A stretch of DNA of 36,982 bases, taken from contig CAIMUP010000137.1 of the NCBI GenBank assembly GCA_903844645.1, forward strand, positions 1 through 36,982. The letters are read 5' to 3'. The position numbers and the translations under genes are program-made. The notes under the pieces were generated by a model. That model ran no database searches. It was given only the letters and a program-made list of their open reading frames with translations, and was not told the origin of the DNA. Shown piece after piece: positions 1 through 36,982 of this stretch (position 1 is the stretch's first letter; each line of letters starts with the position of its first letter). Source of the stretch: an uncultured Bacteroidota bacterium (GTDB lineage: Bacteria > Bacteroidota > Bacteroidia > AKYH767-A > JABDAW01).

Positions 1-87
1 GTTAAGCTATCTGGAGGAATAAACAAGCTATCTCCTTCCATAATTAAGCTATCTGTACGCATCATTAAGCTATCTGTGTAAACCACC
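1..87. repeat. 21-bp tandem array 1 (runs off the left edge)
   Basis: The core AAGCTATCT begins at 4, 25, 46 and 67, so the period is exactly 21 bp. Only about nine bases per unit are conserved; the other twelve differ in every copy. The last unit merges with the dispersed CCTGACAGG element that starts near 76. The array lies beyond the 3' end of the minus-strand gene at 236-922. The window edge probably cuts the array. No coding potential is evident. Confidence 0.85.
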
Positions 88-4488: not shown

Positions 4489-5901
4489 ATGGACATATCA
4501 TACCTTATATTAATGAAATCGGAGGTGATTCTATCACTCTTCATTTTCCTTTTAATCATCCTTAAAATAAAGGAGAAGGAAGCCAATAATTCCTTGGTCT
4601 TCGACATCGTGAATCTATTCCTTGTCATCAACTTTATTATCGGTTTCTTCAACGATTGTAACGGTATACTCTTCAGCGGTATGTATCATACCAATAGCCT
4701 TATTGCCTTGGAGAAAAACATACTGAACTTCGGCGTGCTCATTATCTCTTTGCAAGCTTATTCATGGTTAAAAGACCACAAGCATGTCATCGAGTTTTAC
4801 ATTCTGTTACTTTCCACGTTGCTTGGTATGTTCTTCATGATTTCCAGTGGCAATTTCCTTTTGTTTTATCTGGGATTAGAACTTTCTACCATCCCTCTTG
4901 CTGCCCTTTCTAACTTCGATTTAGAAAAGAAGAAGTCTTCTGAAGCAGCCTTTAAACTTATCATCTCTTCTGCATTCTCTTCCGCTGTTTTGTTATTCGG
5001 AATCTCTCTTTTATATGGCACTACCGGCACTCTTTCATTCACCGAGATGCAACCTCTTATCAAAGGAACCGAATTGCAACTCTTTGCACTCGTAATTATC
5101 TTCTCCGGCTTTGCTTTTAAACTCTCTGCCGTGCCGTTTCACCTCTGGACAGCCGATGTTTATGAGGGTTCTCCCGTTGCCGTTACCGCTTACCTTTCGG
5201 TCATATCGAAGGGGGCGATTATGTTTATCTTTATCTCTGCCCTTTATACCGTTTTCCAGAGCATGGTTCACACTTGGTATCATATCCTTTTTCTGTCCTC
5301 GGTATTGACTATCCTTATCGGTAATCTCTTTGCGTTGCGCCAGCAAAACATCAAGCGTTTCCTTGCCTTTTCTACCATTACGCAGGCGGGTTATATCCTT
5401 CTGGGTATCTCTGCCAACAGTCCGATGGGAACGGCATCGGCTATCTATTTTATCTTAGTCTATATCTGCTCGAACCTGGGGGCTTTCGGTGTTATTTCAT
5501 TGGTTTCGGCAGTAACCGGTAAGGAAAATATTGACGACTACAAGGGTTTCTACACCACGAATCCCCTTCTCTCACTAACCCTTACCCTTTCGCTCTTTTC
5601 TCTGGCAGGAATTCCGCCAACAGCAGGCTTCTTCGGCAAATTCTTTTTGATTTCTGCCGGAGCAGCATCGGGGAATTATGTTTTCATTGCCATTGCAGCC
5701 CTGAATATGGTCGTTTCGCTGTACTATTATCTCCGTGTTGTCAAAGCTATATTCATGGACAAGAATACCACTCCCATTGTGCGCCTAACCTCTCCGCTTT
5801 CCATGAAAATAGCATTACTAATATGTGTAATCGGTATCGTTTTTATCGGATTGGTGAGCCATATTTTTGAACATATTTACTCATTAAGCAATAACCTGTA
5901 A
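4489..5901 (+). CDS. nuoN: NADH-quinone oxidoreductase subunit N
   Basis: A 470-residue polytopic membrane protein of the antiporter-like ND2/NuoN family. It is one of the proton-pumping membrane-arm subunits of respiratory complex I. About fourteen hydrophobic helices are visible. Conserved parts include the FYLGLELSTIPLAALSNF segment with its glutamate (about residue 130), the proton-channel region SGFAFKLSAVPFHLWTADVY (about 205-224; family hallmark K and H), and SLAGIPPTAGFFGKF near residue 375. Length is usual for Bacteroidota NuoN. No other nuo gene is present in the window; its upstream neighbour is a permease and it has its own -7 element. It overlaps the next gene by one base (TAATG), implying translational coupling. 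Confidence 0.92.
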   Translation: MDISYLILMKSEVILSLFIFLLIILKIKEKEANNSLVFDIVNLFLVINFIIGFFNDCNGILFSGMYHTNSLIALEKNILNFGVLIISLQAYSWLKDHKHVIEFYILLLSTLLGMFFMISSGNFLLFYLGLELSTIPLAALSNFDLEKKKSSEAAFKLIISSAFSSAVLLFGISLLYGTTGTLSFTEMQPLIKGTELQLFALVIIFSGFAFKLSAVPFHLWTADVYEGSPVAVTAYLSVISKGAIMFIFISALYTVFQSMVHTWYHILFLSSVLTILIGNLFALRQQNIKRFLAFSTITQAGYILLGISANSPMGTASAIYFILVYICSNLGAFGVISLVSAVTGKENIDDYKGFYTTNPLLSLTLTLSLFSLAGIPPTAGFFGKFFLISAGAASGNYVFIAIAALNMVVSLYYYLRVVKAIFMDKNTTPIVRLTSPLSMKIALLICVIGIVFIGLVSHIFEHIYSLSNNL

Positions 5902-6290: not shown

Positions 6291-6818
6291 ATGATGGAGG
6301 GAATCAGCGCAGAAGAGATAGAAGGTATCGAAGATTTCATCTTTCGTTTGTCAGAAGCTCAACTGAATGAATGGAAAGCTAATCTAAAAGTGAAACAACC
6401 TTATGTATATACAGTATTTACTAGATTTATTAATAAAAACCAAATGCCAAATGAACAAGATACTCTGTTTCGCATCTTGTTTGTGGTACTAAAATGCTTC
6501 GATGTTTATGGTTTCGAGCTACCTTCTTTCACAGAAAAGGAAATGTCGAAGTATGATGTTAAATGGAGACAACAAATGACGGCAGGAATTGGAGAAGTTC
6601 ACCGAAACAATATAATAAAAGTAGGAGAAACCGTGCATCAGGGAACAATTTCTGCATACATTCACGATAAATGTATAGAAAAAGACGCGCCTAATTCACA
6701 AACTTCGTATGTTAAGACAGAGATGAAGTTTAACACTTTAAGTGTTGTCGTTTTGATGTATGGAAGTAAGATAGAAGACCTCCTTCGTCATCAAAACAAT
6801 ACCCTTTCCAAGCAATAA
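6291..6818 (+). CDS. Hypothetical protein, third gene after nuoN
   Basis: A 175-residue, mainly helical soluble protein with no recognised domain. It begins 18 bp after the preceding stop; two ATG codons stand in tandem, and 6291 or 6294 could be the start. The N-terminus is acidic (SAEEIEGIEDFIFRLSEAQL) and leads into amphipathic helices (VYTVFTRFINKNQMPNEQDT, LFRILFVVLKCFDVYGFELP). The C-terminal third (MKFNTLSVVVLMYGSKIEDL) looks beta/alpha. The spacing suggests it is co-transcribed with nuoN and the 123-residue gene. After the stop, an interrupted hairpin (6847-6870) precedes A-rich sequence; it lacks a T-run on this strand, so it is not called as a terminator. Confidence 0.65.
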   Translation: MMEGISAEEIEGIEDFIFRLSEAQLNEWKANLKVKQPYVYTVFTRFINKNQMPNEQDTLFRILFVVLKCFDVYGFELPSFTEKEMSKYDVKWRQQMTAGIGEVHRNNIIKVGETVHQGTISAYIHDKCIEKDAPNSQTSYVKTEMKFNTLSVVVLMYGSKIEDLLRHQNNTLSKQ

Positions 6819-6961
6819 GATACTCCCTTTCATCCTCCTTTTATTGTTGCGCCCCAAAAGGGGAACGCAATCATAAAAAAAGGAATGACAAATCCACTAA
6901 AACCTCCACCAAATCCCGCAAAAGGTACTCCTATTAAGATGCCTTTTATCGGTATTTAATA

Positions 6962-7171
6962 AGAAGATACACCTTTTGAACGAGGTGTTATTCCTTATTT
7001 AATAGCTATAATTGGTAATATAGGAATCTTGATTCCTTTTCTAATAGAAGCTACACCTTTTCAGTCAGAAGCCATACCATTTCGAATATAAGCTACACCT
7101 TTTCAGTCAGAAGCCATACCATTTCCAATAGAAGCTACACCTTTTCGGTCAGAAGCTGAACCTTTTAAGCT
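6962..7171. repeat. 21-bp tandem array 3a (ten registers, four degenerate)
   Basis: Good units begin at 7046, 7067, 7088, 7109, 7130 and 7151, with core AGAAGCTACACCTTTTC or its variant AGAAGCCATACCATTTC. Another clear unit begins at 6962, exactly 84 bp (4 x 21) earlier; the three units between keep only scattered identities such as CCTTTTC at 7035-7041. Register is thus retained through decayed copies. Two unit types alternate, so part of the array is effectively a 42-bp repeat. Confidence 0.88.
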
Positions 7172-7189
7172 TATGTTCATGAACATAAG
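7170..7189. repeat. Perfect 20-bp palindrome between arrays 3a and 3b
   Basis: CTTATGTTCATGAACATAAG is its own reverse complement over all 20 bases. A near-identical palindrome lies at 7379-7400, on the far side of array 3b. It could be a dimeric-protein operator or a hairpin end. Confidence 0.75.
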
Positions 7190-7237
7190 GTCATAAGGTG
7201 ATCCTTTTCACTGAATCTTATATACTTCTTGGTGATA

Positions 7238-7384
7238 AGTGTTCAAGACTATCAGAAAAGTATAGAAGGTTCCGAAAAAAGTGTAGAAGTTTCCCCGAAA
7301 AGTGTATAAGATTCTTGGAAAAGTGTAGAAGTTTTCTGGAAAAGTGTAGAAGATTTATGAAAAAGGTTCATCTTTTGGGCTTAT
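7238..7384. repeat. 21-bp tandem array 3b (inverted relative of 3a)
   Basis: Units begin at 7238, 7259, 7280, 7301, 7322, 7343 and, degenerate, 7364. The core is AGTGTAGAAG followed by a variable part and GAAA. Read on the minus strand the units contain CTTCTACACTTTTCC, which resembles the AGCTACACCTTTTC core of array 3a, so the two arrays are inverted relatives. A possible 64-residue ORF across this array is an artefact. Confidence 0.85.
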
Positions 7385-7400
7385 GTTCATGAACATGAGC
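7379..7400. repeat. Second copy of the ATGTTCATGAACAT palindrome
   Basis: CTTATGTTCATGAACATGAG (7380-7399) differs by one base from the perfect palindrome at 7170-7189, and an outer G-C pair extends it to 7379-7400. Together the two copies bracket array 3b. The remaining sequence up to 7556 is AT-rich with no recognised feature. Confidence 0.65.
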
Positions 7401-7556
7401 TTTTAAGGTATAGCATCTGATTTGGAAGCTGAACCTTCTGATTAAAATGGTTAATATTCTATTAGAAAAGGCAATGCTTCTATTCCAAAAGCTATTTAAT
7501 ATTCCCTAAAGACAACTTTAAATTTTAGATTTCGTTAAACATTTTCGAGGTTTGGA

Positions 7557-8339
7557 ATGCCTTGTTTTATAAATCATTTAAGGGATATTAAAGAAGGTAT
7601 GAAGAAACCAAAAATCAAGATAAAAAGGGAGATGAGAAGAATGGGAAGGTATAAAAGAATTACCTATTTGTTGAAGCATAGTGCATACTTAAATGCCAAT
7701 GCTGGTACTTTTGCCGGAATACCGAATGATGGTGAGGCGGTACGTGTGAACGCGCTGGAATTACAAGAACAACTTATCGCACAAAGGAGGGGGAAGAAGC
7801 TGGATATTGCATATAAAGACCAACTTGATGTATGTTTTGACATGATGGATGCGAATTATGACTTCGTTGACTATGTTTCTGGCGGAGATGTTGATATAAA
7901 TAGTTTATCGGGCTTGAATTCCAGGAAAAATACCAAGCCAAGAACCAAAAGACCGAAGACAGATACGGCAGCACGGTGGATTCCTGACATAACTCCTAAT
8001 CAATTAACGCTGGAGACTACACGGGATGAGGTATCTCGGATTACGACCGTGATTTCTTCCACAGATGAAGGCTTTAAAGTTGAAGTTACTCAACAAAATC
8101 GTATCAAGATTTCGCTGGGAGATAAGTCTTGTCTGATAGATTTCTCTACTGCCGCAAAAATCCTTCTGAAATATCTGGAAGGAGGCAAACCTATCGAAGC
8201 ATTTATCGTTAAAGCCAATGCGAATGGCGTTTCTATTCCTCGGAAATTACCAAAAAATGTTCCAAATGTTGATGGAAATTACAGACCTGCAATATCTCCT
8301 GTACTGCCTCCCGAAACAAGTGCGGAAGACCCTGAATAA
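7557..8339 (+). CDS. Unknown helical protein with a GGD-type element
   Basis: A 260-residue protein without signal peptide or membrane segment. A basic N-terminus (KKPKIKIKREMRRMGRYKRI) is followed by helices that end in YDFVDYVSGGDVDINSLSGL (about residues 97-116). A disordered basic linker (SRKNTKPRTKRPKTD) and a beta-rich C-terminal half come next. The helical part ending 'YV...GGD...LSG' resembles a family of roughly 200-residue Bacteroidota proteins with a helical bundle and fibronectin-like domain; I recall that resemblance by pattern only. The C-terminal half (EVTQQNRIKISLGDKSCLID) has no clear match. The start may instead be Met15 at 7599. It converges on the TMTC-like gene, 41 bp away. 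Confidence 0.6.
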   Translation: MPCFINHLRDIKEGMKKPKIKIKREMRRMGRYKRITYLLKHSAYLNANAGTFAGIPNDGEAVRVNALELQEQLIAQRRGKKLDIAYKDQLDVCFDMMDANYDFVDYVSGGDVDINSLSGLNSRKNTKPRTKRPKTDTAARWIPDITPNQLTLETTRDEVSRITTVISSTDEGFKVEVTQQNRIKISLGDKSCLIDFSTAAKILLKYLEGGKPIEAFIVKANANGVSIPRKLPKNVPNVDGNYRPAISPVLPPETSAEDPE

Positions 8340-14421: not shown

Positions 14422-14658
14422 CTAATATTCCAATAGACACCCCGACCTAAAGGACGGCACTATTCATTCCTTTTATTATTATGTGAGGGATAATTGCAGA
14501 ATGGACGATTTTATTAAAAGTTAGCATATCGCTTCATAGCATTGTTACGGGAATTAAAAAATAGGAGTTTAACAGCATTATTATTAATACCGAAACACCA
14601 TTAACACTACTATTGGTATGAATAGGATATTCCAAAATCCTAAAAAAGCAGCTTTGCA

Positions 14659-14784
14659 GGACTAACGCTCTGCACAAAAACGCGTTTTTCGGCATACCTT
14701 GGACTAACGCTCTGCACAAAAACGGCTTTTTCGAGCTAACCTGAACTAACGCTCGACACAAAAACAGGATTTTCGTCCCTTCCG
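14659..14784. repeat. 42-bp tandem array 4 (three units, 2 x 21)
   Basis: Units begin at 14659, 14701 and 14743. Each contains ACTAACGCTC, then CACAAAAAC, then a T-run. Unit 1 carries a perfect palindrome AAAAACGCGTTTTT, and unit 2 has AAAAACGGCTTTTT at the same place. The period of exactly 42 bp is twice the 21-bp period seen elsewhere. A G9 homopolymer (14809-14817) follows. The rest of the 14422-14986 gap shows no gene. Confidence 0.88.
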
Positions 14785-14986
14785 TAGTTTGCGATGTGGT
14801 AACTTTTCGGGGGGGGGTAGTCGCATCGCCAATTATCCTTTGCAAAGATTTTTTTAAAATTCCGAAGCCCTTTCATCGCCTTCTTAATAAAATTTTTCTT
14901 CCACGACATGCCGCTATTCATGGTGAATAATTTGACAAAATTTTTGTAATTTTACGCCTTCAATATTCACCGAAATTTTTAATCTC

Positions 14987-18202: not shown

Positions 18203-18268
18203 CCTATTTAATGCCATATTGGTATTGAATATTCCCAAAAAGAGGTCGAAAAAAGCCGCCAATCACTG

Positions 18269-18373
18269 CCTTGCGTGTGGAAATCAGAGCCCTGCGTGTG
18301 GAAACCAACGCCCTGCGTGTGGAAACTTTTGACCTCCGTGTGGAAACCATTGACCTCCGTGTGGAAACTTTTG
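18269..18373. repeat. 21-bp tandem array 5 (five units)
   Basis: Units begin at 18269, 18290, 18311, 18332 and 18353. The conserved part is TGCGTGTGGAAA, or TCCGTGTGGAAA in the last units, followed by a variable five to six bases such as CCAACG, CTTTTG or CCATTG. A degenerate unit may precede at 18248. The array lies between two same-strand exported-protein genes. The rest of the gap up to 18549 shows only a possible TAATTTTA promoter-like string near 18497. Confidence 0.9.
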
Positions 18374-18549
18374 ACCCCTTTCGGGGGATGCCCCATCCGA
18401 ATAAACCTATCAAAAGAAGGAATCAAAAAACCATTCCCTAAAGCGTACAGATAGGAAATATTTCAATGGAAATTTCCGAATGTGATTTCCTTTTCTTAAT
18501 TTTACCCCGTTAAATAAAAACAATGCTTGTTGAATTAAATAGTATTCCT

Positions 18550-23295: not shown

Positions 23296-23469
23296 ACTAA
23301 TGATGATGTTGATAAATCATTATCAAAAAACTAAAACAAGCCCTCTAAAGTTTTATTAAATAACAATATTAATGCTCAAACTCACTGCCGTCGCAGAACG
23401 GATGCCTCTTACCTTTACTAAAAATTTGACTTTTTCCGGTGTAGGAACGGTAGGGCTGGCGAAAAAGAT

Positions 23470-23697
23470 GTCATTCGGTTTGCGAGGAATGACCTGTTCT
23501 TCAAAAAAGATGTCATTCTCTTTGCGGGGAACGACATGGGGGACAAAATTCTTGTCATTCTCTTTGCGAGGAACGACATTTTTGGGAAAATTTTTGTCAT
23601 TCCTTTTGAGAGGAATGACAAAAAGTACGCAATATTTGTCGTTCCTCTCAAGAGGAATGACATGTTTTGGGGAAACAGGGTCAGGAAGAAACGACAT
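23470..23697. repeat. 42-bp tandem array 6 with palindromic GTCATTC units
   Basis: GTCATTC or GTCGTTC begins at 23470, 23512, 23554, 23596 and 23638, and a degenerate copy starts at 23680; each step is exactly 42 bp. Each unit has a dyad half: GTCATTCC, a short centre, then GGAATGAC or GGAACGAC, followed by an 18-base spacer. In the fifth unit the centre reads CTCTCAAGAG, close to the reverse complement of the fourth unit's centre CTTTTGAGAG. Frames open through the array are artefacts. The array lies in a convergent gap. Confidence 0.9.
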
Positions 23698-25883: not shown

Positions 25884-26534
25884 ATGATATCTCTCTCCAA
25901 CATTGTTACTTTATTGTGTGCCTACCTCCTCGGTTCCATCCCGACTGCGGTATGGATTGGGCAAATATTCTACAAAATAGACGTCCGCGAATACGGCAGT
26001 GGCAATGCCGGAGCCACCAATACCTTCCGAGTTTTGGGGTATAAAGCGGGTATTCCGGTATTAATTATTGACATTTTCAAGGGCTGGGCGAGCGTTGCGA
26101 TATTGGTCGTGGTGCTGAAGAAATTCAACTTCGTTCAATCCGGTTCCGAGGAATATGGAAACATACAATTAGGCTCCGGCATTGCTTGCCTGATGGGGCA
26201 TATCTTCCCTATCTATGCGGGTTTCAGAGGGGGTAAGGGTGTCGCCACATTACTCGGTATCATGCTCGCCATCCACCCAAATTCTACCGGCGTTTGCATC
26301 GGAATATTCATCCTCACGCTCCTCCTTTCGGGGTATGTTTCCTTGAGTTCCATGATTGCCGGATTCGCCTTTCCGTTCCTCCTTTTATATGCCTTTCATA
26401 ATGAAAATGAAATCCAGAATTTATTCTCCATGCTCATCGCGACCCTGATTTTGGTAACCCATCAAAAAAATATCGAAAGGCTCTTTCGGGGCGCAGAACC
26501 GAAGATAAAACTATTCAAAAAGAAGAAATCTTAG
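25884..26534 (+). CDS. plsY: Acyl-phosphate:glycerol-3-phosphate acyltransferase PlsY
   Basis: A 216-residue inner-membrane enzyme with about five hydrophobic helices. It transfers acyl groups from acyl-phosphate to glycerol-3-phosphate, the first step of phospholipid synthesis. All three family motifs are visible: LLGSIPTAVWIG (about 14-25), REYGSGNAGATNTFRVLG (about 33-50) and GHIFPIYAGFRGGKGVATLLG (about 110-130). The C-terminus is basic (FKKKKS). The start is ATG 25884, chosen from the promoter position. It is divergent from tsaE and convergent with ribD; array 7 begins 10 bp after its stop. Confidence 0.94.
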   Translation: MISLSNIVTLLCAYLLGSIPTAVWIGQIFYKIDVREYGSGNAGATNTFRVLGYKAGIPVLIIDIFKGWASVAILVVVLKKFNFVQSGSEEYGNIQLGSGIACLMGHIFPIYAGFRGGKGVATLLGIMLAIHPNSTGVCIGIFILTLLLSGYVSLSSMIAGFAFPFLLLYAFHNENEIQNLFSMLIATLILVTHQKNIERLFRGAEPKIKLFKKKKS

Positions 26535-26543
26535 TCCAACTTT

Positions 26544-26732
26544 GCCGGCAAAGACGACAACTTCGCTGGCGTAGATGACGCCGTCGCTGGTGTAGTTGAC
26601 GTCGTCGCTGGTGTAGTTGACGCCGTCGCTGGCGTAGATGCCGTCGTCGCCAGCGTAGATGACGCCGTCGCTGGTGTAGTTGACGTCGTCGCCAGCGTAG
26701 ATGACGCCGTCGCCAGTGTATATTGATGTTAA
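26544..26732. repeat. 21-bp tandem array 7 (nine units, flipping core)
   Basis: Units begin at 26544 (degenerate), 26565, 26586, 26607, 26628, 26649, 26670, 26691 and 26712. Each has GCTGG or GCCAG, then YGTAG, then a TGACGYCGTC-like part. The core reads CGCTGGCG in some units and its reverse complement CGCCAGCG in others, in the same flanks. The array fills most of the convergent gap between plsY and ribD, and is GC-rich compared with its surroundings. Confidence 0.93.
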
Positions 26733-28758: not shown

Positions 28759-29047
28759 TCGCTTCTTATTAATATTTGACAGTTTTCGAGGAATAATGAT
28801 TTATCTCCGATGAATTGTACTATATTCCCGAGGGATTAACATAGGCTTCTTCGGAAAACAACCTTAGACTTCTTGCATAATTAAGGTACCATAGTGATTG
28901 GCTACTTATAATTGGGTAATGATGAAAAAGATCTATTATTTAGTTACGTTACTATATGTTTTGATTGTCAAAAGGAGGTAGGTGATAACACCAAAGAAAC
29001 CATTATCATATAAAAAGTAACTCCTTATATATACAGCATTCCTATTT
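28759..29047. other. Gap after prmC, no gene found
   Basis: This AT-rich stretch precedes array 8. It contains only a 19-codon frame at 28922-28981 (MKKIYYLVTLLYVLIVKRR), which looks like the start of a signal peptide but stops at once. No terminator or repeat was recognised. Confidence 0.4.
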
Positions 29048-29236
29048 ATGCCTCGAGGATTACTTTTTATGCCTGCAGGATTACTTTTTATGCCTGCAGG
29101 ATTACTTTTTATGCCTCGAGGTTTACTTTTTATGCCTGCAGGATTACTTTTTATGCCTGTAGGATTACTTTTTATGCCTCGAGAGTTACTTTCGATGCCT
29201 CGAAGGTTACTTTCGCATATGCGAAAACTACTTTTA
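29048..29236. repeat. 21-bp tandem array 8 (nine units, CCTCGAGG/CCTGCAGG)
   Basis: ATGCCT begins at 29048, 29069, 29090, 29111, 29132, 29153, 29174 and 29195, and a degenerate unit starts at 29216. Each unit is ATGCCT, a palindromic centre, then a TTACTTTTT-like tail. The 8-bp palindrome is CCTCGAGG in some units and CCTGCAGG in others, so both halves changed together. Later units (CCTGTAGG, CCTCGAGA, CCTCGAAG) are less symmetric. Peptide repeats read here are artefacts of the 21-bp period. Confidence 0.93.
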
Positions 29237-29348
29237 CTATCGTAATGGGACGGACTTTTGGTTGTACATGTTAATGAAAAAAGTCCATAAGTCCCATAAA
29301 GACTTAGTAACCGCCAAAAGAGGTCTAATAAATAATTCAAGAAATAAT

Positions 29349-31086: not shown

Positions 31087-31338
31087 CAGTTATTCTGCCG
31101 TTCGAGAACTCCACATCTCTATTCCCATGCGTTATTCCGGTTCTCTAAAACTGTAGATGTCCAAACCATCGCGTTATTCCGGTGTTCTAAAACTGTAGAT
31201 CTCTAAACCCACGCGTTATTCTCCCAATCGAGAACTTCAGATGTCCGGAACCACGCGTTATTCTCCAATTCGAGAACTTCAGATGTCCAGAACCACGCGT
31301 TATTCTCCCAATCGAGAACTTCAGATGTCCAGAACCAC
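31087..31338. repeat. 42-bp tandem array 9 (six units, 2 x 21)
   Basis: GCGTTATTC begins at 31129, 31171, 31213, 31255 and 31297; a variant CAGTTATTC sits at 31087 and a broken GCGTTGG at 31339, all exactly 42 bp apart. Units read GCGTTATTCTCC, then CGAGAAC, then TTCAGATGTCC and a short A/C-rich part. TTCTC and GAGAA form a small dyad in the later units. The first three units are the most diverged. Confidence 0.9.
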
Positions 31339-31477
31339 GCGTTGGTTTGAAGATAATGAGCAACTAATCAGTGTATTTTGAGTTTATGGGGATTTCGGGT
31401 TGGTGATCAGTTGTTTGGAGAATTTAATCTACCAAATCATTGCCGTCCCGTTTACAGGACGGACAGCAATGGAAACA

Positions 31478-31701: not shown

Positions 31702-34341
31702 ATGAAAAATTATTTACTTAAAATAGCAATGATTGCAGGATTTGCTCTCCTCACCATCTCCCTCCAGGCACAGCCCTGGATGGCGAATATCACCGATAAA
31801 AACAACCCTAACTTTTTTGAAATTCAAAAAGCGTTTAACGATTATTGGGCATCGAAAGGCATAGACTTCTCCAAGAAAAAAGGAAAGGAAAGCGAAGACG
31901 AAGAATTGGCAGGCTGGTATCAGTTCAAACGGTGGGAATGGTTCATGAGTCCCCGTGTCTCTAAGAATGGAGAGTTCCCCGATCCGATGATTGCCTACAA
32001 TGAATACCGCAAGTTTGAGAGTCAGAATAATCAACGAACGAAGCAGATTAATAGCATCACCTCGAACTGGACTTTGATGGGTCCTATTGCCGTTCCTACC
32101 GCAACCAGTGGGCAACATGGGGCAGGACGTTTGAATTGTTTGGCAGTAAATCCGATGAGTTCTTCTATTCTTTATGTAGGCTCACCCGGTGGCGGCTTTT
32201 GGCGATCGAATAATGGCGGAACAACTTGGGTCGCTACCGGAGATCACAATGCTACCTTGGGAGTATCCGATATTGCCGTCAATCCCGTAGATACGAGCAT
32301 TGTCTATATCGCGACAGGAGATAATGATGCGAACGATACCTACTCGGCAGGCGTTCTGAAGTCCACCAATGGCGGCATGACCTGGAATACGACGGGCTTG
32401 AATTGGGCAGTAAGCGGTTCGAGAATCATGGCTAAGATATTGATTAAACCCGATTCGGTGAATGTATTATTAGCCGCTACCGGCAATGGGATTATGCGCA
32501 GCGTGGATGCTGGAGTAACCTGGACAACCCAGCTAAACTTGGCAGGGATAAGAGATTTGAAATTGAAACCAAACCATTCGAGAGTAGTGTATGCGAGTAC
32601 GAATACACATATCTATCGGTCGCTCAATGGAGGGATTTCTTTTAGTTTGGTTTCATCTGGTTTGCCCTCTACGGGGATGGATAGGATAGCATTAGGAGTT
32701 ACTCCTGCCGATTCAAATTATGTTTACGCCTTGTATTCAGCATCAGATTATAGCTACGGAGGCGTTTATCTTTCTACCGATGGAGGAACGACCTTTACCA
32801 CGCAGTCCACCGCACCGAACTTATTAGGCTTTGCTACGAACGGTAACAGTACCGGTGGACAAGGTTGGTATGATCTGGCATTGGGGGTTTCGCAAACTTC
32901 CAAGACTACAATTATGGTGGGCGGAATCAATGTTTGGAAATCTACCACCAGTGGTGCTACAGGAGGCTGGAGCTGTGTCGGCAAAGGGTATAATCCAGTA
33001 ACGAGTGCAAGCCATATTCATCCCGATGTTCATGGTATCATGTTTCAGCCAGGAAGTGGAACGGTAGTATATTGTATGAACGATGGAGGGATTTTCAAAA
33101 GCACCAACACAGGCACTGCCTGGACGGATATTAGTTCTGGCTTATCCATCATGGAATTTTATAGTACCAGCACTTCGCAGAATATCTCTACCGTATGTAT
33201 CGGCGGTGCGCAGGATAATGGTTGTAATAAATACACTTCGGGTTCATGGGAGAGCATAGCAGGGGGCGATGGAATGCACGTAGAAATTGATAAAACCGAT
33301 GCCAACCAAATGTATGAAGAACTGCCTAATGGCGATATTTCTTATTCTAATAATGGTGGTGGCGGCTGGGTAGATATTACCCCCTTTGGGAATGCTAATG
33401 GCGGATGGGTTACTCCCTTTTTGATAGACCCTACTACCCATACCACTTTGTATGCTGGCTATTCGGATGTATATAAAACTACTGACCAAGGCAATAATTG
33501 GGTTTCGATAACCAATGGGAATCTTACATCAGGCACTAATTTGGTTCAGGCGATGGCTGTAGCTCCTTCTAATTCTAATACTATTTACGTGGCTTACGGT
33601 CCGCCAGTAGTAGGTATTGCCGATTGTAATGCCCTCTTTAAAACGACGAATGGCGGCACTTCTTGGGCAAGCATTACGGGTACACTTCCATTGGGTGTTG
33701 CACCCTTAACTTCTATTGTTGTGAAGCCTAATGATCCCAATACTTTATGGGTTACTTTAACAGGGTATAATCCGGTGGATAAAATCTTCAAAAGCACGAA
33801 TGGCGGAGCTACTTGGACGAATGTTTCCGGTAATCTTCCTAATGTCCCTATCAATTGCGCAGTCTATGTTCCGAATACTCCCAATGCTCTTTATGTAGGC
33901 ACCGATTTGGGTGTTTATTACACCGATGATGTCCTTGGCACTTGGGTTTCGTTCAGTACCAATCTGCCTAATGTTGTCATCAATGATCTGCATATCCAAA
34001 CTACTACCAGCAAGCTCCGGGCAGGCACTTATGGCAGAGGGATGTGGGAAACGCCGATGTATATCACCACTAATATCCCGAATGAATTGGCAGTTGATAA
34101 TTCCATTAATCTATTCCCGAACCCTACCACTGGCGAAATATTTATTGATATTCCAATGAATGAGAACACCGATATTACCGTATTCAATGTCCTTGGCGAA
34201 CGCATGGAGGGTTTATCTATCGAAGCAAAAGGGATGACCCAATACGCTATTAATCTAAGCAAAGAACCGAAAGGGATTTATTTTGTTCGCATCCAAGCAG
34301 GCGAGAATATCATTACCGAGAAGGTGGTTTTAATTAAATAA
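31702..34341 (+). CDS. BNR/sialidase-like propeller protein with T9SS type A sorting domain
   Basis: An 879-residue exported protein. The start is ATG 31702, which opens a signal peptide (MKNYLLKIAMIAGFALLTIS, ends QAQ); longer in-frame extension would include a repeat element. About 130-780 carry many BNR/VPS10-like propeller repeats, seen as STNGGxTW, SLNGGISF, KTTNGGTSW, KSTNGGATW and 'NTLYVG/NALYVGTDLGVYYT' lines. No sialidase catalytic Arg triad was identified, so this may be a non-enzymatic propeller. Residues about 801-879 form a type A sorting domain (INLFPNPTTGEIFIDIP, FNVLGERMEG, GIYFVRIQAGENIITEKVVL). Type IX secretion to the surface or medium is expected. Relatives are often annotated 'glycosyl hydrolase' from the repeats only. 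Confidence 0.87.
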   Translation: MKNYLLKIAMIAGFALLTISLQAQPWMANITDKNNPNFFEIQKAFNDYWASKGIDFSKKKGKESEDEELAGWYQFKRWEWFMSPRVSKNGEFPDPMIAYNEYRKFESQNNQRTKQINSITSNWTLMGPIAVPTATSGQHGAGRLNCLAVNPMSSSILYVGSPGGGFWRSNNGGTTWVATGDHNATLGVSDIAVNPVDTSIVYIATGDNDANDTYSAGVLKSTNGGMTWNTTGLNWAVSGSRIMAKILIKPDSVNVLLAATGNGIMRSVDAGVTWTTQLNLAGIRDLKLKPNHSRVVYASTNTHIYRSLNGGISFSLVSSGLPSTGMDRIALGVTPADSNYVYALYSASDYSYGGVYLSTDGGTTFTTQSTAPNLLGFATNGNSTGGQGWYDLALGVSQTSKTTIMVGGINVWKSTTSGATGGWSCVGKGYNPVTSASHIHPDVHGIMFQPGSGTVVYCMNDGGIFKSTNTGTAWTDISSGLSIMEFYSTSTSQNISTVCIGGAQDNGCNKYTSGSWESIAGGDGMHVEIDKTDANQMYEELPNGDISYSNNGGGGWVDITPFGNANGGWVTPFLIDPTTHTTLYAGYSDVYKTTDQGNNWVSITNGNLTSGTNLVQAMAVAPSNSNTIYVAYGPPVVGIADCNALFKTTNGGTSWASITGTLPLGVAPLTSIVVKPNDPNTLWVTLTGYNPVDKIFKSTNGGATWTNVSGNLPNVPINCAVYVPNTPNALYVGTDLGVYYTDDVLGTWVSFSTNLPNVVINDLHIQTTTSKLRAGTYGRGMWETPMYITTNIPNELAVDNSINLFPNPTTGEIFIDIPMNENTDITVFNVLGERMEGLSIEAKGMTQYAINLSKEPKGIYFVRIQAGENIITEKVVLIK

Positions 34342-34526
34342 AAACCAACTAAAAACAGTATTATTTCGTCCTGAAAAAACTCTTTTCCGGACATCTGTTT
34401 TTACACCCATTTTGCCCATTCCGTGGACAGCACCCTGTTCCAGAACACTTTTTTGATACCCTATTTTAGCGCCTTATCAGATTGATCTTCAGTAACTTGT
34501 GAAGAAAAAAAACGATGTTCAAAATG

Positions 34527-34736
34527 CCCCTGGTAATTACCAATTGTAAGACGATAACTGCCAATTGTAAGATGATAACTGGCAGTTGTAAGACCATCTT
34601 TGCCAGTTGTAAGACGATAACTGGCGATTGCAAGACGATAACTGCCAGTTGCAAGACCATAATTGCCAATGTACAGACCATCACTGCCAATTACAAGACA
34701 ATAACTGGCAGTGAATAGACCACAACTGCCAATTAC
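34527..34736. repeat. 21-bp tandem array 10 (ten units, flipping core)
   Basis: AAGAC-type unit starts lie at 34548, 34569, 34590, 34611, 34632, 34653, 34674, 34695 and 34716, with a degenerate first unit at 34527. Units combine AAGACGATA (or AAGACCAT) with ACTGCCAATTGT or ACTGGCAGTTGT. The core ACTGGCAGT and its reverse complement ACTGCCAGT both occur in the same flanks. Remaining sequence of the 34342-34860 gap shows nothing else. Confidence 0.92.
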
Positions 34737-34860
34737 AAGTAGATTTTGTGAATCAAAACAGCTTTCGGTGGTGGATTAATGATAAGTATTTTCCTTTTCT
34801 GTTGGGTATATCAATTACGTTATTGAACGGAATAGACCTTATAGAAATGAAAAATATTTG

Positions 34861-36597: not shown

Positions 36598-36756
36598 GCC
36601 TGTTTTTCACTCTGTTTTTTCTCCTTGTTTTGACCCTTTAAAAAACTCAAGTACACCTCCAAAACAGTTTTCGGCGCAAAAAGTTCGGGAAGTAACAATC
36701 TTGTATTCAATTACTTGCAGGCAATAATGTCGTATGCTCGCCCGCCCCTGAAAATT

Positions 36757-36982
36757 GGCAATGTTTAGAAGAACATTGCCAATGTTTAGGAGAATGTTGG
36801 CAATGTTTAGGAGAATATTGGCAATGTTTAGAAGAATACTGGCAATGTTTAGGAGAATACTGGCAATGTTTAGGAGAATGTTGGCAATGATTAGGAGAAT
36901 ATTGGCAATGATTAGAAGAATACTGGCAATGTTTAAGAGAATGTTGGCAATGTTTAGGAGAATGTTGGCAGTGATTAGAAGA
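36757..36982. repeat. 21-bp tandem array 11 (ten units plus; runs off the right edge)
   Basis: GGCAATG-type unit starts lie at 36757, 36778, 36799, 36820, 36841, 36862, 36883, 36904, 36925, 36946 and 36967. Units are GGCAATGTTTAGGAGAAT followed by ATT, GTT or ACT. One junction reads CATTGCCAATG, the others the reverse-complement core ATTGGCAATG. Units are highly alike, so this looks like a recently homogenised array. It lies downstream of the 5S gene. Confidence 0.95.

What the first reader, a model, noticed from the sequence alone, without database searches (positions are those of the whole stretch)
6962..7400. Inverted pair of 21-bp arrays separated and capped by a 20-bp palindrome
Array 3a (plus-reading AGCTACACCTTTTC) and array 3b (minus-reading CTTCTACACTTTTCC) are inverted relatives. 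A perfect palindrome CTTATGTTCATGAACATAAG lies between them, and a one-mismatch copy caps the far end of 3b. An inverted pair around a palindrome could extrude as a long cruciform or mark an inversion event. The palindrome may itself be an operator.
Basis: partly seen in the sequence, partly recalled or inferred. Interest (0 to 1): 0.6.

Follow-up and report, generated by a model that had tools for sequence, protein, structure and literature searches.

The report
Giant inverted array of 21-bp repeats
Between two genes of an uncultured lake bacterium lies a 540-base stretch built of 21-base units and arranged as one huge imperfect mirror palindrome; it is one of roughly 900 arrays, nearly all with exactly this spacing (two turns of the DNA helix), that fill the gaps between genes in this bacterial genus and that I found no earlier description of.

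Summary
P1 (CTTATGTTCATGAACATAAG, 7170-7189) is perfect; P2 (7380-7399) has one mismatch. The reading changes: the palindromes do not cap separate arrays. The region ~6955-7490 is one 21-bp register. P1 and P2 lie exactly 10 units apart on the dyad axis of the surrounding units, as mirror partners in a giant inverted repeat centred at 7284.5 (154-nt arms 70% complementary; 0/600 controls match the best-centre score). A congener has the locus without indels, with the same centre, spacing and two identical 14-bp cores.

The locus belongs to a genome-wide phenomenon. In 1.36 Mb sampled (35%), 256 segments repeat at 21 bp and at most 2 at any other unit length from 12 to 40. Arrays make up 5% of the DNA and occur in about two thirds of gaps >=200 bp. 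Unit sequences differ between arrays, but self-complementarity recurs and some arrays hold units flipped in register. Only a few were seen in 1.45 Mb outside the genus.

Best reading: a period-locked repeat system, constrained at two helical turns and reshuffled by in-register inversion, probably acting as a DNA scaffold. Period, symmetry and conservation are shown; function is inferred. RNA-hairpin covariation was tested and not supported.

The parts
6955..7490 (.). Whole element: one continuous 21-bp register (about 25 units) containing 3a, P1, 3b, P2 and the right-hand part
   Evidence: same dyad axis class ranks first in each section; gap-free alignment to the congener G002 over this stretch (54% identity at the left end, 73-84% from 7131 on)
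7023..7174 (+). Array 3a, unit about CAGAAGCTACACCTTTTCAGT, with a 42-bp alternation
7170..7189 (.). Palindrome P1, perfect 20 bp, CTTATGTTCATGAACATAAG
   Evidence: core ATGTTCATGAACAT identical in G002
7232..7372 (-). Array 3b, unit about GAAAAGTGTAGAAGATTCCTG, inverted relative of 3a; belongs to the largest similarity cluster of arrays (13 members)
7380..7399 (.). Palindrome P2, one mismatch to P1, exactly 210 bp = 10 units downstream of it
   Evidence: same spacing in G002
7401..7495 (-). Right-hand inverted counterpart of 3a (mirror of 7074-7168, 64% identity)
7074..7227 (+). Left arm of the giant inverted repeat
   Evidence: arms of 154 nt, 70% complementary; centre 7284.5
7342..7495 (-). 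Right arm of the giant inverted repeat
6291..6818 (+). Upstream neighbour, 175-aa ORF without a Pfam match (context)
7557..8339 (+). Downstream neighbour, 260-aa ORF without a Pfam match; ortholog at 70% aa identity in G002 next to the same element

Best explanation
The locus is one 21-bp-phased array shaped as a giant imperfect palindrome, and a strong member of a genome-wide, lineage-specific set of intergenic arrays locked to 21 bp, i.e. two turns of B-DNA. SHOWN: the strict period, the intergenic location, the enrichment of self-complementarity without a shared motif, in-register inverted units in about a tenth of arrays, and cross-species conservation of register, centre and palindromes at this locus. 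INFERRED, process: arrays spread and homogenise by copying; because a symmetric unit reads alike on both strands, strand exchange or hairpin-mediated template switching can copy units backwards while keeping the 21-bp register, which makes inverted halves and occasional perfect palindromes such as P1 and P2. INFERRED, function: what is selected is the helical phase and two-fold symmetry of the DNA, most likely as a scaffold on which an abundant, weakly sequence-specific dimeric nucleoid protein assembles on one face of the helix, or as a supercoil-absorbing element; the protein is not identified.
For: Period: 256 segments at lag 21, <=2 at any other lag 12-40 in 1.36 Mb; 94 at lag 21 in G002 against at most 8 at any other lag up to 40, 12 at lag 45. 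Location: 278 of 323 arrays intergenic, in 209 of 311 gaps >=200 bp of all three gene orientations. No coding signal (open frames 0.85 vs 0.82 in controls). Unit dyad symmetry: z 10.7 in G000 and 3.2 in G002, mirror-symmetry control not raised. Palindrome centres spaced at multiples of 10.5 bp (441 pairs vs about 11 per other bin; coding 23 vs 12). Arrays fold better than period-preserving column permutations on both strands (mean z about -1.9). In-register flipped units in 36 of 327 arrays on one axis, 0 on the next best axis; seen by eye in L246 and L187. 51 of 275 arrays have a long inverted centre with >=55% complementarity, 0 of 272 array-free stretches. This locus: no indel in the array stretch against G002, cores 100%, 3b 73%, third codon positions 67%; same inverted centre ranks first in G002.
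Against: No binding protein or process was identified. Unit palindromy is a tendency only: 63% of G000 arrays have >=6 of 10 pairs against 38% by chance. The left end of the element (6961-7130) is only 54% identical in G002. Dyad phase is not generally carried into the flanks or between different arrays of one gap. Half of the arrays fall into similarity clusters, so common descent could explain part of the fixed period without selection.
Confidence: 0.42

Rival explanations
1. Neutral satellite family: one ancestral 21-bp array spread to many gaps by duplication; the period is inherited, sequences drift and are homogenised locally, and the arrays do nothing.
For: 189 of 385 arrays fall into 65 similarity clusters, some across species. 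DNA outside the detected arrays keeps a faint 21/42/63/84 lag, as decayed arrays would. A 3b-like array also stands before a paralog of the downstream gene in G002.
Against: Arrays with unrelated units still share the exact period, and single-base slips (lags 41 and 43: 8 and 6 cases) do not found new 20- or 22-bp arrays. At this locus register and palindromes are conserved across a divergence at which third codon positions are 67% identical.
Confidence: 0.3
2. RNA-level element: the gap is transcribed and the giant hairpin, in which P1 pairs with P2, acts in termination, RNA stability or processing.
For: Fold z -9.4 and -7.1; arrays genome-wide fold better than period-preserving controls.
Against: Both strands fold comparably and divergent gaps carry arrays as often as others (53 of 73). 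No compensatory excess between species (4 double changes vs 2.6 mean and 7 maximum at other same-class centres) or within arrays (ratio 1.32 vs up to 1.50 in slid controls). 21 matches B-DNA (10.5 bp per turn) rather than A-form RNA (about 11; own knowledge).
Confidence: 0.12
3. P1 and P2 are a pair of sequence-specific operators, 20 helical turns apart, for a dimeric repressor that loops the DNA upstream of the gene at 7557.
For: 14-bp core identical in 4 of 4 copies over two species while outer bases vary; spacing 210 bp conserved. TGTTCNNGAACA 19 sites against 2 for the reversed control.
Against: The two copies are mirror partners of one inverted repeat and may homogenise each other. At least half of the 19 sites are explained by another 21-bp array and a dispersed repeat. 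The core has no second exact locus in the genome.
Confidence: 0.12
4. Cruciform or inversion switch: the inverted pair flips 7190-7380 or extrudes as a phase-variable device.
For: Inverted repeat beyond 0/600 controls; flipped units occur in other arrays.
Against: Same order and orientation in G002. Arms only 70% complementary, so poor recombination substrates. No recombinase gene was seen among the window proteins scanned against Pfam.
Confidence: 0.04

Closest known systems
Tandem repeats of archaeal Borg elements (PMC9879509)
   Same: Many independent-looking repeat regions per genome, each with its own unit, largely absent from related genomes
   Different: Borg units vary in length, are perfect, A-rich, fast-evolving, and about half lie in ORFs; here the period is fixed at 21, units are imperfect, not coding, self-complementary, and this locus is conserved between species
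REP/BIME elements mobilised by RAYT transposases
   Same: Short intergenic palindromic units, sometimes in clusters
   Different: REP units share one sequence family genome-wide; here unit sequences differ, and the only PF01797 matches in the genus are partial or interrupted
Iteron or centromere-type phased arrays (plasmid iterons, parC/tubC, omega heptads)
   Same: Direct repeats in helical phase that could seat a dimeric protein on one face of the DNA
   Different: Those are one or a few loci with one motif; here there are hundreds of loci without a common motif, and no 7-bp sub-period
Intergenic tandem repeats of freshwater Planctomycetota (PMC9426551)
   Same: Intergenic tandem repeats in lake bacteria, there linked to structural variation
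   Different: No fixed period or symmetry is mentioned in the passages I read
Eukaryotic satellite DNA
   Same: Concerted evolution of tandem units with a fixed period related to DNA packing
   Different: Small dispersed arrays in a bacterium, confined to gene gaps, with in-register inversions

Membership tests
REP/BIME with RAYT | Intact RAYT (Y1_Tnp, PF01797) in the genome | tested here: not met
   Only partial matches in G000 (80 codons), G001 and G002, several with internal stops; full-length ones in the same family and order
REP/BIME with RAYT | One shared palindromic sequence family genome-wide | tested here: not met
   No k-mer or dyad-aligned motif common to arrays
CRISPR array | Constant repeats separated by unique spacers | tested here: not met
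   Units are head-to-tail 21-mers without spacers
Protein-coding heptad (7-codon) repeat | Open reading frame through the array | tested here: not met
   Stops in the frames at the locus; open frames genome-wide equal to reversed and complemented controls
Structured RNA element | Compensatory base changes in paired positions | tested here: not met
   Not above controls within arrays or between species; no Rfam match in the window except 5S rRNA
Structured RNA element | Transcription of the element | not testable with these tools
   No expression data
Borg-type tandem repeats | Variable unit lengths, perfect units, A enrichment, many in ORFs | tested here: not met
   Period 21 only; 278 of 323 intergenic, 32 overlapping called ORFs; units imperfect
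Phased protein-binding array (iteron- or centromere-like) | Spacing of whole helical turns | tested here: met
   21 bp = 2 x 10.5; palindrome centres at multiples of 10.5 bp
Phased protein-binding array (iteron- or centromere-like) | Common recognition motif | tested here: not met
Phased protein-binding array (iteron- or centromere-like) | Cognate DNA-binding protein | not tested
   No candidate was sought systematically
Satellite-type repeat family | Shared descent and local homogenisation of units | tested here: inconclusive
   189 of 385 arrays cluster by sequence, the rest do not

The most novel reading that the evidence does not exclude
A bacterial genus carries a chromosome-wide, period-locked repeat system: about 900 intergenic arrays at exactly two helical turns, selected for spacing and two-fold symmetry rather than sequence, seating a dedicated architectural protein and evolving by in-register inversion of units, a bacterial counterpart of packing-related satellite DNA.
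Probability: 0.3. Interest if true: 0.85.

Novelty: new variant of a known kind. Interest (0 to 1): 0.62.

Why it matters
Bacterial intergenic tandem repeats are usually few and of mixed periods. Here about 5% of the chromosome consists of arrays nearly all with one period equal to two helical turns, with symmetric units whose sequence is free. If the spacing is selected, it points to a chromosome-wide DNA architecture in bacteria that can be tested with one pulldown or one respacing experiment; if it is not, it is a bacterial satellite with an unusual copying process that keeps register while flipping strands.

Tried and rejected
(1) Arrays confined to the 3' ends of genes, as the window alone suggested: rejected, divergent gaps carry them as often. 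(2) Hairpin covariation within arrays: an apparent excess in the first 436 kb did not survive a larger sample and wider slid controls. (3) Compensatory change between species at this locus: not above controls. (4) RAYT/REP: rejected. (5) Common motif, heptad sub-period or coding heptads: rejected. (6) Dyad phase shared by different arrays of one gap: 5 of 27 at phase 0, several of them between similar arrays; not a general rule. (7) Dyad axis carried into flanks: weak. (8) ATGTTCATGAACAT as a general array cap: rejected. (9) Comparison of orthologous matE and ribD gaps with G001 and G002: synteny broken, uninformative. (10) A first control for the giant inverted repeat (last line) excluded the true centre by construction; redone correctly. 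Nine literature searches found no description of 21-bp intergenic arrays in Bacteroidota; the library holds open-licence papers only.

Full report
WHERE IT IS. The window is contig C137 (36,982 bases) of a 3.84-Mb, 143-contig assembly. Proteins with type IX secretion signals and the nearest named relatives of the NADH-quinone oxidoreductase subunit at 4489-5901 place it in the Chitinophagales, among uncultured lake bacteria; the nearest is the metagenome-assembled genome Umea1_bin-0439, 80% identical in that protein (same genome as G001). The finding lies in the 738-bp gap between two co-directional ORFs without Pfam matches (6291-6818 and 7557-8339).

OBSERVATION. Arrays 3a and 3b are tandem repeats of 21 bp. 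P1 (7170-7189) is a perfect 20-bp palindrome and P2 (7380-7399) a one-mismatch copy. The 14-bp core occurs exactly only at these two places in the genome. 3a matches inverted 3b at 13 of 21 positions, which 1.8% of random array pairs reach.

ONE REGISTER, ONE AXIS. Written in rows of 21, the stretch 6961-7485 keeps one register. P1 and P2 are exactly 210 bp apart. The axis class of the palindromes ranks first of 21 in 3a, in 3b and right of P2, each computed without the palindromes (4.7-5.3 of 10 pairs against a mean of 2.7-2.9). The palindromes are thus the most symmetric units of a symmetric array and not separate capping elements.

GIANT INVERTED REPEAT. The repeat finder gives arms 7074-7227 and 7342-7495, 70% complementary over 154 nt. 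The centre, 7284.5, is the midpoint of P1 and P2. Complementarity there is 70% against a background of 28% and 49% for the next best centre, and 66% with the palindromes left out. In 300 column permutations and 300 permutations of unit order no control reached the observed score. As single strands the region folds with z -9.4 and -7.1, P1 pairing with P2.

CONSERVATION. A congener (G002, 70% identity in the downstream protein) has the same element. The array stretch aligns without a gap. Identity is 54% in the left part of 3a, 84% around P1, 73% in 3b, 100% in both 14-bp cores and 67% at third codon positions of the next gene. P1 and P2 are 210 bp apart there too, and the inverted centre ranks first at exactly the same place (60%). 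Pairing is kept by sequence conservation, not by compensatory change.

GENOME-WIDE SETTING. I sampled 1.36 Mb of the genome (35%), 0.85 Mb of G002 and 53 kb of G001. Counting segments with at least 31 of 42 matches at a given lag, lag 21 gives 256 in G000 and no other lag from 12 to 40 more than 2; G002 gives 94 at lag 21. With multiples of 21 merged there are 323 arrays (5.1% of the DNA; extrapolated to about 900 per genome), 278 of them intergenic, in 209 of 311 gaps of 200 bp or more (co-directional 121/187, convergent 35/51, divergent 53/73). Gene calls are my own ORF heuristic. Contigs often end inside arrays, this one included. In 1.45 Mb of other Chitinophagales only a few arrays of this type appear (L036, L058, L059, L126), plus period-7 arrays in Niastella and Longitalea. 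The genus-level restriction is therefore a matter of density and rests on samples.

SYMMETRY WITHOUT MOTIF. Consensus units are self-complementary far more often than 21-mers from array-free gaps (z 10.7 in G000, 3.2 in G002); mirror symmetry, the control, is not raised. Palindrome centres in gaps are spaced by multiples of 10.5 bp (441 pairs against about 11 per other bin); part of this follows from the geometry of any symmetric 21-bp array. No motif is shared, though half of the arrays fall into small similarity clusters. Against a control that keeps period and unit variation, arrays fold better on both strands in both species (mean z about -1.9). Long inverted centres with at least 55% complementarity occur in 51 of 275 arrays and in none of 272 array-free stretches; the present locus is among the top four of about 376. 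In 36 of 327 arrays units stand in both orientations on one axis, none on the second-best axis; L246:47-384 and L187:17663-17925 show it by eye.

INTERPRETATION. A sequence-specific protein cannot recognise hundreds of unrelated palindromes, and RNA structure should leave covariation, which was tested and not found. What is shared is spacing and symmetry. I infer that two helical turns is the constrained quantity, that units are copied in either orientation while the register holds (strand exchange or hairpin-mediated template switching), and that the arrays serve as a phased DNA scaffold. The process is moderately supported; the function is inference. A neutral satellite family with inherited period is the main rival, and an operator pair remains possible at this locus because of the fully conserved cores.

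The suggested genome search was run: the exact core does not recur. The relaxed form TGTTCNNGAACA has 19 sites: two here, four as units of a 21-bp array on C12 (6338-6433), several in a dispersed repeat, the rest scattered. So the palindrome is not a general cap. The second test, similarity of 3a and 3b, is passed modestly. The long-read test could not be run.

Noticed in passing
window 2-87, 1991-2203, 14647-14787, 18253-18392, 23443-23674, 26532-26732, 29017-29237, 31105-31364, 34525-34750, 36742-36982: Ten further 21/42-bp arrays in the window, all in gene gaps; the contig begins and ends inside arrays, which seem to break the assembly.
   Followed up: partly
window 6833-6884: Hairpin-like element (TCCTCCTTTTATTG...CAATCATAAAAAAAGGA) with counterparts at the same place in G002:C81 and after the 123-aa gene in G002:C178; looks like a conserved terminator-like repeat.
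   Followed up: no
window 34335-34470: Dispersed repeat containing GTGTTCTGGAACA, 8 places in the genome, beside CAATTG-type arrays in two of them and at the ends of contigs C19, C22 and C103: perhaps the end of a mobile element.
   Followed up: partly
G000:C12:6244-6481 (L222): Another 21-bp array whose units carry TGTTCGGGAACA, the same palindrome class as P1 and P2.
   Followed up: partly
L246:47-384: Near-perfect palindrome of about 300 bp made of alternately inverted 21-bp units (84% complementary), probably recent.
   Followed up: partly
L187:17663-17925: 21-bp array in which single units (GCGGAA... and TTCCGCC...) stand in either orientation in one register.
   Followed up: partly
L188:4726-4991, L219:1-257, L210:19245-19341: 3b-like arrays (ACTTTTCCGGAAAAGT core) before a paralog of the 260-aa downstream gene in G002 and at the ends of contigs C9 and C48 of this genome, which may be adjacent.
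   Followed up: partly
L036:15380-15755, L058:5598-5781, L059:18447-18735: 21-bp arrays in other uncultured Chitinophagales at low density; the phenomenon may be wider than the genus.
   Followed up: partly
L079, L084, L102 (Niastella, Longitalea): Tandem arrays of period 7 (also seen at 14 and 21), apparently a different kind.
   Followed up: no
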